Positions 1-39,997 of a DNA stretch of 39,997 nucleotides are shown here, piece by piece. The DNA comes from a virus. Both the position numbers and the translations under genes were made by a program. The stretch covers positions 1 to 39,997 of IMG/VR virus record IMGVR_UViG_3300047476_000208. The stretch is one strand, 5' to 3'. Each line of letters begins with the position of its first letter. Positions within the stretch are counted from its first letter, which is position 1. A model generated the notes under the pieces. The model was not told the origin of the DNA. It worked only from the letters and a program-made list of their open reading frames with translations, and searched no databases.

Positions 1-179
1 TCAAACTGATACGGTATTGCGTCTCTTGCCGCTGGACTTAGCTTGACATCTTCCCCGCCGGCTCCCATTGATGTGCTTACGAGGTCTCCGGGGCGTAGTT
101 GCGGGAACCTTTTTTGCAGCTGTTCCACGACCCACTTTTGCAGGTTTCGTCCTTTTGCTTTTGCTGACTGCGGCTTCAT
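1..179 (-). CDS. PD-(D/E)XK-like nuclease, truncated copy at window edge
   Basis: This is the first part of the gene that is complete at 39309-39647. It begins at ATG 177-179 and runs off the left edge because of the terminal repeat. See the complete copy for the description. Confidence 0.7.
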   Translation of the reverse strand, partial: MKPQSAKAKGRNLQKWVVEQLQKRFPQLRPGDLVSTSMGAGGEDVKLSPAARDAIPYQF

Positions 180-429
180 CTTTTGTTTCCTCTAACTGTT
201 GCGTCAAAATCCAAGACTTAGGAATGCTGATACGATTGTTGCATTCGTGATCAGATACAGTTCCTGCGACACAGATTGCATCGTCAGTTTCTCCAACAAG
301 AAAGCCTACTGTAACGCATTGTGCAATATCTACCTTGGGTTCGTCCCAGCCAGCATCGGCTTGAGCGTCAATCCAAGTAATCTTGATAACAGGACAATCC
401 TGTAACTTCACTTTACTGGCGGATGCCAT
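1..429 (-). CDS. Phage protein of unknown function with basic C-terminal tail (copy 1)
   Basis: It has 142 residues. An ATG at 429 (MASASK...) is preferred over one 27 bases upstream because GAGAGGAGAAG lies just before it. Residues 1-80 look like a compact folded domain, with a W-x-DA...GW start and an SIPKSW segment. From about residue 90 the chain is Lys/Arg/Pro rich and contains no acidic residues. That tail overlaps the downstream nuclease out of frame for 179 bases. The start overlaps the end of the exonuclease by 22 bases. I do not recognise the family. The tail could bind nucleic acid or could be read-through of a lost stop. The same gene is at 39469-39897. Confidence 0.7.
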   Translation of the reverse strand: MASASKVKLQDCPVIKITWIDAQADAGWDEPKVDIAQCVTVGFLVGETDDAICVAGTVSDHECNNRISIPKSWILTQQLEETKDEAAVSKSKRTKPAKVGRGTAAKKVPATTPRRPRKHINGSRRGRCQAKSSGKRRNTVSV

Positions 430-1085
430 ACTTGCTTCTCCTCTCTTAAAATCCATAATAAACGAGCATTTTCAAGCACTCTGGCTTCGTCGCCATCGTA
501 CGCTTTCAATACAGCTTCGTACATCTCTAATTCGGTATTGCAGTCTGCTAACAACTTCTTGGACTTAACAGGACCAACGCCCTGCAGTCCAATAATGTTG
601 TCAACCTTGTCGCCTGTAAGGATCTGAAGGTAGAAGTTACGGATCGCCTCTTCTTCGGTCACGAAGTACTTTTCTTCCCTGACGAAGTTGTAATGATTAC
701 CACGAATCATGTTGAGGTCTTTGTCAATGCTGACAATGATTGTCTCTTCTGGATCGTGGCGATAGGCTTCGATACCAATCGCATCATCCGCTTCCATACC
801 ATCTATTACTTCAAATCCCCAAGCTCTTTCCATGTATTCCCGAAGCAACTGAAAGTGATACGGCTTCGGTGCAACACGATTGCCTTTGTATGGCGCAGTC
901 TTAGCTATGTCGTGCCGGAAATTATCACGACCAGTAAGATAGCCCCATGCTTCGGTGATGCCGTCTTGTAATATTAGATTGTCCAAGAATTCGGATAGAC
1001 GAGCTAGCGCAAACTCTGCTGGGTCTCCTTCGGATGCGAATCCGAATCGATACACAAGAATATCGGCATCAACCAAGGCGATCAT
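408..1085 (-). CDS. 5'-3' exonuclease (T7 gp6-like, FEN/PIN family)
   Basis: This 225-residue metal-dependent exonuclease probably removes primers and trims DNA ends during replication and recombination. Visible metal-binding residues are D6 and D8 (VDADIL), the ADD group at 99-101, the DKD group at 121-123 and GDKVDN at 158-163. A helix-three-turn-helix with GLQGVGPVKSKKLL follows at about 167-180. Length and motif order match single-domain phage 5' nucleases. The ATG overlaps the stop of the SSB gene as ATGA, so translation is likely coupled. A partial second copy of its end lies at 39876-39997. Confidence 0.93.
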   Translation of the reverse strand: MIALVDADILVYRFGFASEGDPAEFALARLSEFLDNLILQDGITEAWGYLTGRDNFRHDIAKTAPYKGNRVAPKPYHFQLLREYMERAWGFEVIDGMEADDAIGIEAYRHDPEETIIVSIDKDLNMIRGNHYNFVREEKYFVTEEEAIRNFYLQILTGDKVDNIIGLQGVGPVKSKKLLADCNTELEMYEAVLKAYDGDEARVLENARLLWILREEKQVWHPPVK

Positions 1086-10351: not shown

Positions 10352-10603
10352 TTAAGCCTCCTGAGTGTGAATGAATGAGCCGTTTACTAGATCATTAAAG
10401 AAACCCTGATCCGCTTGTATAGCTTGAACGCCATCTAACCATTTATTGATATGTCGGCTTGTGGTTTTTGACCATTTGTATGAAGTGCGGTAATAATTAT
10501 GGTTTAGCTTACACGCTACCGGTGTCTCATAGCTGAATAATACCTGTGTGCCATCATTTAAGACTAATTCGGTCATGTTTGACGCTATTGGTTTGATTCT
10601 CAT
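10352..10603 (-). CDS. Phage protein of unknown function, paralogue of 9457-9756
   Basis: It has 83 residues from the ATG at 10603 (GGAAAGG upstream). An ATG at 10636 would add 11 residues, but it lies 7 bases from the ribozyme cleavage site and lacks an SD. The body reads SYETPVACKLNHNYYRTS, then RHINKWLDG, then FFNDL, matching its paralogue. If the ribozyme cleaves, this gene lies on the 3' product, which begins with a 5'-OH. Confidence 0.7.
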   Translation of the reverse strand: MRIKPIASNMTELVLNDGTQVLFSYETPVACKLNHNYYRTSYKWSKTTSRHINKWLDGVQAIQADQGFFNDLVNGSFIHTQEA

Positions 10604-10637
10604 TTGTGATACCTTTCCAAAGTTAGGATACTGCATT

Positions 10638-10689
10638 GACTAAGACTGTCTCTCGACAGTTTCGGCTATTTAAGCCTCATCAGTTAGTC
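10638..10689 (-). ncRNA. Hammerhead self-cleaving ribozyme (type I)
   Basis: Read on the minus strand from 10689: GACUAA (stem I); the conserved core CUGAUGA; GGCU and AGCC pairing around UAAAU (stem II); GAA; ACUGUC and GACAGU pairing around a GAGA tetraloop (stem III, with A15.1-U16.1); the cleavage nucleotide C17; and UUAGUC, which closes stem I. All invariant core positions are present and all three stems pair without mismatch. Stem I is the open one (type I topology). Cleavage is predicted between 10644 and 10643. The stop codon of the upstream 77-residue gene is part of stem I, and the next gene starts about 40 bases past the cut. It would split the early polycistronic RNA. Confidence 0.92.
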
Positions 10690-10917
10690 TTGAATAATTC
10701 TATCAGAGTCAGTCTTAACACCTTCGGGAAATCTGTCTTTAAGGTGAGCCATGAATATAGCCATGTAAACCTCACACTCTAAAGAGTCATAAGCATAGCC
10801 GTGGCTTTCTGCGCCGTTTCTAGCGCCGTAAAACTTAACACCCGGAACAAAGCCTTTGACATCAGCTTTAGCTTGATTGAGGGCTGTTACTAAGGATTTA
10901 AATTCATTGTTTTGCAT
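10684..10917 (-). CDS. Small protein of unknown function (77 aa)
   Basis: It has 77 residues with SD AGGAGA. It starts with a helix (FKSLVTALNQAKADV), then GFVPGVKFYGARNGAESHGYAYDS and a second helix. The stop codon TAA forms part of stem I of the hammerhead ribozyme. It is the second gene of the leftward block. Confidence 0.7.
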   Translation of the reverse strand: MQNNEFKSLVTALNQAKADVKGFVPGVKFYGARNGAESHGYAYDSLECEVYMAIFMAHLKDRFPEGVKTDSDRIIQD

Positions 10918-10938: not shown

Positions 10939-11115
10939 TTAATCGAGGTGTAAGTGATGGCTATTACCATCGTGATCGATGTCGGCATTCCGAGCCTCTA
11001 AAGCCACCAGAGTGAAGTTATCAGGGTCTTTTGACACGAACTGATTAGCAAGTGCCTCACTATCAAATGAGCCGTAAATTGAGCCGTTTTTGTCTTGAAC
11101 ATAAAAGTATTGCAT
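10939..11115 (-). CDS. First gene of the leftward block, small protein (58 aa)
   Basis: The ORF is 58 residues with SD AAAGGA. It begins MQYFYVQDKNGSIYGSFDSE, has a strand-helix pattern and ends in a His/Asp-rich tail. It is the first gene downstream of the leftward promoter, after a leader of about 390 bases. Confidence 0.65.
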   Translation of the reverse strand: MQYFYVQDKNGSIYGSFDSEALANQFVSKDPDNFTLVALEARNADIDHDGNSHHLHLD

Positions 11116-39312: not shown

Positions 39313-39647
39313 TTGTTCCTCGCTATTAAATCAAAGAATACTTCTGCATCAACAACAACTAAAGGTTTCTTGCCATTTTGCTTGACAACAGCAACTGGTT
39401 CATGGTTGCCGTGTGTCTTTGCTTGTTCATAATAATTATAAACTGCTACTTTGGCAAGACTTTTACACTCAAACTGATACGGTATTGCGTCTCTTGCCGC
39501 TGGACTTAGCTTGACATCTTCCCCGCCGGCTCCCATTGATGTGCTTACGAGGTCTCCGGGGCGTAGTTGCGGGAACCTTTTTTGCAGCTGTTCCACGACC
39601 CACTTTTGCAGGTTTCGTCCTTTTGCTTTTGCTGACTGCGGCTTCAT
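39309..39647 (-). CDS. PD-(D/E)XK-like nuclease
   Basis: It has 112 residues. The N-terminal helix KGRNLQKWVVEQLQKRFPQL is followed by GEDVKLSPAARDAIPYQFEC and K, matching the D/E...(E)xK pattern of PD-(D/E)XK endonucleases such as Hjc-like resolvases. A strand KPLVVVDAEVFFDLI ends it. It lies beside replication genes and may resolve junctions or debranch replicating DNA. Its start overlaps the basic tail of the upstream ORF for 179 bases out of frame. A truncated copy is at 1-179. Confidence 0.78.
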   Translation of the reverse strand: MKPQSAKAKGRNLQKWVVEQLQKRFPQLRPGDLVSTSMGAGGEDVKLSPAARDAIPYQFECKSLAKVAVYNYYEQAKTHGNHEPVAVVKQNGKKPLVVVDAEVFFDLIARNK

Positions 39648-39897
39648 CTTTTGTTTCCTCTAACTGTTGCGTCAAAATCCAAGACTTAGGAATGCTGATA
39701 CGATTGTTGCATTCGTGATCAGATACAGTTCCTGCGACACAGATTGCATCGTCAGTTTCTCCAACAAGAAAGCCTACTGTAACGCATTGTGCAATATCTA
39801 CCTTGGGTTCGTCCCAGCCAGCATCGGCTTGAGCGTCAATCCAAGTAATCTTGATAACAGGACAATCCTGTAACTTCACTTTACTGGCGGATGCCAT
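39469..39897 (-). CDS. Phage protein with basic C-terminal tail (copy 2)
   Basis: This is the second copy of 1-429, created by the terminal repeat. Here the downstream nuclease is complete, so the 179-base out-of-frame overlap (39469-39647) is seen in full. See 1-429 for description. Confidence 0.7.
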   Translation of the reverse strand: MASASKVKLQDCPVIKITWIDAQADAGWDEPKVDIAQCVTVGFLVGETDDAICVAGTVSDHECNNRISIPKSWILTQQLEETKDEAAVSKSKRTKPAKVGRGTAAKKVPATTPRRPRKHINGSRRGRCQAKSSGKRRNTVSV

Positions 39898-39997
39898 ACT
39901 TGCTTCTCCTCTCTTAAAATCCATAATAAACGAGCATTTTCAAGCACTCTGGCTTCGTCGCCATCGTACGCTTTCAATACAGCTTCGTACATCTCTA
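39876..39997 (-). CDS. 5'-3' exonuclease, truncated copy at right edge
   Basis: It carries the C-terminal codons of the exonuclease that is complete at 408-1085, cut by the window end. It is not a separate gene. Confidence 0.85.
   Translation of the reverse strand, partial: EMYEAVLKAYDGDEARVLENARLLWILREEKQVWHPPVK

What the first reader, a model, noticed from the sequence alone, without database searches (positions are those of the whole stretch)
10638..10689. Complete type I hammerhead ribozyme in the phage early operon
The minus strand has every invariant hammerhead position: CUGAUGA, a stem II starting G-C, GAAA, a 6-bp stem III with a GAGA loop and A15.1-U16.1, C at the cleavage site, and a closed stem I. 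Stem I contains the stop codon of the upstream gene, and the next gene starts about 40 bases after the predicted cut (10644/10643). The RNA could self-process the polycistronic message and leave a 5'-OH on the downstream part, changing its stability. As I recall, type I (stem I open) is less usual in bacteria and phages than types II and III.
Basis: partly seen in the sequence, partly recalled or inferred. Interest (0 to 1): 0.95.

Follow-up and report, generated by a model that had tools for sequence, protein, structure and literature searches.

The report
Self-cutting RNA between phage genes
A short RNA that should cut itself (a type I hammerhead ribozyme) sits exactly between two genes of this phage, and near-identical designs sit between small genes in over a hundred other phage sequences, where they probably chop long messages into single-gene ones.

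Summary
Minus strand 10689-10638 is a complete type I hammerhead ribozyme (HHR): every core base, 6-bp stem I, 4-bp stem II, 6-bp stem III and a GUC cleavage site, cut predicted at 10644/10643. Chance is excluded: 2 such matches in 371 Mb of shuffled window. Rfam 15 misses it, but Rfam also misses the published PaP3 HHR. Copies covary in all three stems, cluster up to seven per contig on one strand, and sit at gene junctions: upstream stop codon in or abutting the ribozyme, next ATG 27 nt (median) after the cut. Neighbouring genes are not conserved, and at the window's own junction relatives mostly lack the ribozyme, so it is a modular, optional intercistronic element. Best explanation: it self-processes early polycistronic mRNA. 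Cleavage itself is not shown here. Phage hammerheads flanking small ORFs have been known since 2010-11, so this is a new member of a known kind, within a large compact subfamily absent from Rfam.

The parts
10684..10917 (-). Upstream gene, 77 aa, unknown function; its stop TAA (10686-10684) is the 3' part of the stem I 5' arm
   Evidence: ORF list; AGGAG before its ATG; no PHROG match, no relative in IMG/VR
10684..10689 (-). Stem I, 5' arm (GACUAA)
   Evidence: Sequence, fold
10677..10683 (-). Catalytic core C3-A9 (CUGAUGA)
   Evidence: Sequence
10664..10676 (-). Stem II hairpin, 4 bp, loop UAAAU (family loop U-N-A-N-U/G)
10661..10663 (-). Core G12 A13 A14
   Evidence: Sequence
10645..10660 (-). 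Stem III hairpin, A15.1-U16.1 plus 5 bp, GAGA tetraloop
10643..10644 (-). Predicted cleavage site: after C17 (10644), GUC triplet; downstream RNA begins at 10643
   Evidence: Hammerhead rule applied to the sequence (inference)
10638..10643 (-). Stem I, 3' arm (UUAGUC); 5' end of the downstream product
10604..10643 (-). 40-nt leader left on the downstream mRNA, with a conserved TCY-TAACTTT-RGA hairpin-like segment and Shine-Dalgarno
10352..10603 (-). Downstream gene, 83 aa, phrog_5643, unknown function; relatives in 65 viral contigs
10700..10722 (-). End of the upstream coding region; could pair with the stem III/stem I 3' side and compete with the ribozyme fold
   Evidence: Folding with longer flanks

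Best explanation
It is a catalytically competent type I hammerhead ribozyme, one copy of a large compact phage subfamily placed at the junction between two early genes. When the minus-strand operon is transcribed, the RNA folds and cuts itself after C17 (10644). The upstream message ends in the stem II/III hairpins with a 2',3'-cyclic phosphate; the downstream message starts with a 5'-OH and a 40-nt leader whose ribosome-binding site is free of ribozyme structure. The element is a modular, optional intercistronic processing site that works with any neighbouring genes. Shown: sequence, fold, covariation, recurrence, gene-junction placement, optional presence. Inferred: cleavage in the cell, the end chemistry, and the likely benefit (uncoupling and stabilising single-gene messages: hairpin-protected 3' ends, and 5'-OH ends that do not feed 5'-monophosphate-dependent RNase E decay).
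For: Complete core and fold; 2 strict matches in 371 Mb of shuffles. Of 127 IMG/VR matches to a core/stem II pattern, 125 complete a hammerhead against 9 of 2520 with shuffled flanks; stem I is exactly 6 bp in 124. The strongest mutual-information column pairs are the stem I and II pairs. 52 unique copies outside the pattern show the same features: 50 with 6-bp stem I, A next to stem I in 51 (5') and 47 (3'), loop II U in 48/48 and A in 46/48 of those with a 13-nt hairpin. Relatives of the same phage group carry it. Placement: upstream stop mostly at -9, -8, -3, +1 or +11 relative to C3; ATG-started ORF downstream in 165 of 170, cut-to-ATG median 27 nt, IQR 24-31. Adjacent copies on the same strand in 58 of 58 pairs, median spacing 634 nt; in the whole records examined with three or more copies they lie within one segment, e.g. 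seven within 5 kb of an 83-kb record. Flanking proteins fall into 229 clusters out of 330.
Against: No cleavage, transcript or 5'-end data here. In longer context the predicted MFE of this copy is an alternative fold 3.7-6.5 kcal/mol better than the hammerhead at flanks of 30-60 nt, though the hammerhead is again the MFE at 80 nt. Most orthologous junctions lack the ribozyme, so it is not essential. The tertiary contact that fast hammerheads need is suggested only by conserved bases.
Confidence: 0.8

Rival explanations
1. The ribozyme is active, but its main product is a circular or spliced RNA: a gene lying between two hammerheads is released with 5'-OH and 2',3'-cyclic phosphate ends, which RtcB or the reverse hammerhead reaction can join.
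For: Many contigs carry arrays about one gene apart; in some (L138, L188, L199) all stem I arms are identical, so one copy's core could pair with another's 3' arm, and within-contig stem I identity is 36% against 5% between contigs.
Against: Other arrays (L124, L194) use a different stem I at each junction, and stem III identity is enriched within contigs too, as recent duplication would give. The window has a single copy. Perreault et al. looked for such products and found none (PMC3088659).
Confidence: 0.08
2. The hammerhead is a selfish or recombination-borne module that spreads between phage junctions with little benefit to the phage; cleavage is tolerated because each gene keeps its own leader.
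For: Optional presence at one orthologous junction, unrelated neighbouring genes, same leaders in front of different genes with and without the ribozyme.
Against: Strong conservation and covariation across very diverse sequences, exact junction placement, and no mobility gene or repeat unit seen with it.
Confidence: 0.15
3. It is a switchable ribozyme: a segment at the end of the upstream gene pairs with the cleavage-site strand, and ribosomes translating that gene release it, so cutting depends on translation.
For: The alternative fold is strong in this copy and the upstream stop codon lies in stem I.
Against: No relatives of the upstream gene were found to test conservation; over the family the median gap between best fold and hammerhead is only 1.2 kcal/mol at 60-nt flanks; co-transcriptional folding may bypass it.
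Confidence: 0.1
4. A chance or decayed motif without catalysis.
For: Rfam does not call it; long-range misfolding is predicted.
Against: All core bases intact, chance about 2e-4 per window, covarying relatives; Rfam also misses the PaP3 hammerhead, reported active by Perreault et al..
Confidence: 0.03

Closest known systems
Bacterial and prophage hammerheads of Perreault et al. 2011 (PMC3088659), including type I, clustered around small genes; Pseudomonas phage PaP3
   Same: Same core, same three-stem fold, phage context, several copies flanking single genes; processing of long phage transcripts was already proposed and cleavage shown in vitro and, for A. tumefaciens, in E. coli
   Different: Here one uniform compact type I design (6-bp stem I bounded by A and A, U-N-A loop II) with measured stop/start geometry and an optional-presence comparison; PaP3's copy has a core variation and scores far lower in our model (34.7 bits)
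Rfam RF03152 RAGATH-1-hammerhead
   Same: Type I topology, CUGAUGAG...CGAAAC core, GUC site; best sub-threshold Rfam match (21 bits; 25.9-28.6 bits for L138)
   Different: Its model has an extra 5' hairpin and a 5-bp stem I and needs 56.3 bits; none of the 13 family loci scanned reaches any gathering score
Rfam RF00163 Hammerhead_1
   Same: Type I hammerhead
   Different: One L138 copy scores 19.9 against a cut-off of 34
Schistosoma and newt satellite type I hammerheads
   Same: Open stem I; loop II to stem I tertiary contact (review PMC6155905)
   Different: Those sit in repeats, with internal loops in stem I; here the contact would be at the end of a 6-bp stem I (inferred)

Membership tests
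Hammerhead ribozyme | Core C3 U4 G5 A6 N7 G8 A9, G12 A13 A14, A15.1-U16.1, H17 | tested here: met
   Sequence; N7 = U, H17 = C
Hammerhead ribozyme | Three stems around the core, G10.1-C11.1 pair | tested here: met
   Fold; covariation in relatives (rows were chosen for pairing, one search is an unselected test of stems I and III)
Hammerhead ribozyme | Loop II to stem I tertiary contact | tested here: inconclusive
   Conserved U-N-A loop II and A bases bounding stem I, no covarying contact pair found
Hammerhead ribozyme | Mg2+-dependent self-cleavage to 2',3'-cyclic phosphate and 5'-OH | not testable with these tools
   Needs in vitro transcription
Type I hammerhead | Stem I open, stems II and III closed by loops | tested here: met
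RAGATH-1-hammerhead (RF03152) | Gathering score 56.3 bits, extra 5' hairpin | tested here: not met
   21 bits in the window
Rfam Hammerhead_1 (RF00163) | Gathering score 34 bits | tested here: not met
   No gathering match in the window; 19.9 bits for a relative

The most novel reading that the evidence does not exclude
Tailed phages of many lineages use a standard compact type I hammerhead as a plug-in intercistronic processing site, several per early operon, dicing nascent polycistronic RNA into single-gene messages with a hairpin 3' end and a short 5'-OH leader: an RNA-only counterpart of RNase III or RNase E operon processing, mostly invisible to current annotation.
Probability: 0.5. Interest if true: 0.8.

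Novelty: new member of a known kind. Interest (0 to 1): 0.58.

Why it matters
What hammerheads do in phages and bacteria is described as an open question (PMC6155905). The uniform design and its fixed place between stop and start codons give a specific, testable role, and cultured phages that carry it (Pelagibacter phages HTVC019P and Jormungand, Flavobacterium phage elemoB) make the test possible. It also shows that Rfam thresholds leave a large ribozyme subfamily unannotated.

Tried and rejected
Rfam at gathering threshold gave nothing for the window or 13 family loci; treated as a sensitivity limit because PaP3 is missed too. A scan for the downstream leader motif (14 specified bases plus one N) returned almost only chance matches and was dropped. 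blastn of the region against cultured phages found nothing; short ribozyme queries found Pelagibacter and Flavobacterium phages. No relatives of the upstream gene. A link to a particular gene family was rejected: 229 clusters among 330 flanking proteins and few, mostly unnamed PHROG matches. A loop II-flank pseudoknot was looked for by mutual information and not seen. Bacterial genomes: only 22 pattern matches in GTDB contigs, 9 of them passing the completeness test and some of those weak (stem III of 3 bp), so the family looks mainly viral.

Full report
Observation. On the minus strand, 10689-10638 reads GACUAA CUGAUGA GGCU-UAAAU-AGCC GAA ACUGUC-GAGA-GACAGU C UUAGUC. Every invariant hammerhead position is present, stems I, II and III have 6, 4 and 6 pairs, and the cleavage triplet is GUC. 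The isolated RNA folds exactly into this structure (-16 kcal/mol, z -2.9). Nine thousand dinucleotide shuffles of the window (371 Mb) gave two matches of this stringency, about 2e-4 per window. Topology is type I: stem I is the open one.

Surroundings. The window is a tailed-phage contig (terminase, portal, major head protein, DNA polymerase, primase/helicase, ribonucleotide reductase) whose first 529 bases recur at its end, so the unit is about 39.5 kb. The ribozyme lies on the sense strand of a run of small minus-strand genes. The 77-aa gene 10917-10684 has its own Shine-Dalgarno and ends with the TAA inside stem I. The next gene, phrog_5643 of unknown function, starts at ATG 10603, 40 nt after the predicted cut; its orthologues start there, not at the longer ORF start listed mechanically at 10636.

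Relatives. Among 80 viral contigs with a related terminase, complete type I hammerheads occur in L003, L004, L017, L018 (two) and L040, none of type II or III; the family model adds two variants with an extra base before stem II (L026, L034) and a cut-off copy in L041. Of 127 matches with enough flank, 125 complete a hammerhead, with stem I exactly 6 bp in 124; with shuffled flanks 9 of 2520 do. This is an unselected test of stems I and III. In 69 aligned copies the pairs change on both sides at 14 of 16 positions; those rows were chosen for intact pairing, so the percentage paired there is not evidence by itself. In 174 copies the strongest mutual information falls on the stem I and II pairs. 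Conserved features outside the classical core are an A directly before stem I, an A directly after it, and loop II U-N-A; these also hold in 52 unique copies that do not match the search pattern. They probably mark the loop II to stem I tertiary contact, which is inference.

Placement. For 174 unique copies, the longest upstream frame ends mostly at -9, -8, -3, +1 or +11 relative to C3, that is, next to or inside the ribozyme, which offers stop codons in stem I, the CUGA core and often loop II. An ATG-started ORF of at least 30 codons begins within 110 nt of the cut in 165 of 170, median 27 nt, interquartile range 24-31. Neighbouring copies are always on the same strand (58 of 58) at a median of 634 nt, and in the whole records examined with three or more copies they lie within one segment, e.g. 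seven within 5 kb of an 82.7-kb record. The flanking proteins are small and nearly all different (229 clusters of 330; few PHROG matches).

Optional presence. Orthologues of the downstream gene were found in 65 viral contigs. Close relatives share the leader ...GCAGTATCYTAACTTTRGA... before the ATG. Most have TAGTAGTAAACTTAAAC or similar in front of it where the window and L341 (the same contig as L018) have the ribozyme; L372 has a variant with an extra U before stem II. So the element is gained or lost at a given junction without change to the leader.

Mechanism. Type I cleavage leaves the hairpins on the 3' end of the upstream message and only six former stem I bases on the 5' end of the downstream one. 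This fits the placement: the downstream ribosome-binding site is not burdened by structure, the upstream message gets a hairpin end, and the 5'-OH should not feed the 5'-monophosphate-dependent RNase E route (general knowledge of RNase E, not tested here). I therefore favour operon self-processing, at 0.8 for the ribozyme acting as a cutting site and clearly lower for any particular effect on stability. Rivals are circular RNA formation, a mainly selfish module and translation-dependent switching; the last rests on a competing fold with the end of the upstream gene that cannot be tested by comparison.

Known or new. Rfam does not call the window copy or any copy in 13 family loci, but it also misses the PaP3 hammerhead. 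Hammerheads of all three types in prophages and phages, often several around small genes, were reported by Perreault et al. 2011, who proposed transcript processing and showed cleavage for several (PMC3088659); the review PMC6155905 says the same and calls the function open. Literature searches found no later paper on this family, but the library holds no preprints and lacks most subscription papers, and the sequence sets of 2010-2011 could not be checked for these copies. I file the feature as a new member of a known kind; the compact subfamily and its geometry are the new part.

Noticed in passing
window 10628-10618 (-); L330-L389 upstream of the phrog_5643 gene: Leader segment TCC-TAACTTT-GGA, in relatives TCT-TAACTTT-AGA, looks like a covarying 3-bp hairpin with a 7-nt loop just before the Shine-Dalgarno; it occurs with and without the ribozyme and before different genes.
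   Followed up: partly
window 11150-11115 (-): Leader GATCAACAGTAGATAAGAAAGG before the gene at 11115 resembles the leaders that follow the ribozyme in L004, L018 and L200.
   Followed up: no
window 1-529 and 39469-39997: Exact 529-bp end repeat; the unit genome is about 39,468 bp.
   Followed up: yes
L323:2940-3016, L322:2989-3065, L321:2989-3064: Pelagibacter phages carry a hammerhead of this family upstream of the MarR-like regulator and integrase genes, followed by a conserved GTACATACTATGTG-type palindrome.
   Followed up: no
L026:1875-1943, L034:647-714, L372:1322-1389: Variant hammerheads with CTGATGATGGG..., an extra U between A9 and stem II; whether they are active is unknown.
   Followed up: no
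L404, L409, L411 (Polaromonas MAG): Family-model matches with an interrupted stem III on several contigs of one genome bin, possibly a chromosomal or prophage repeat.
   Followed up: no
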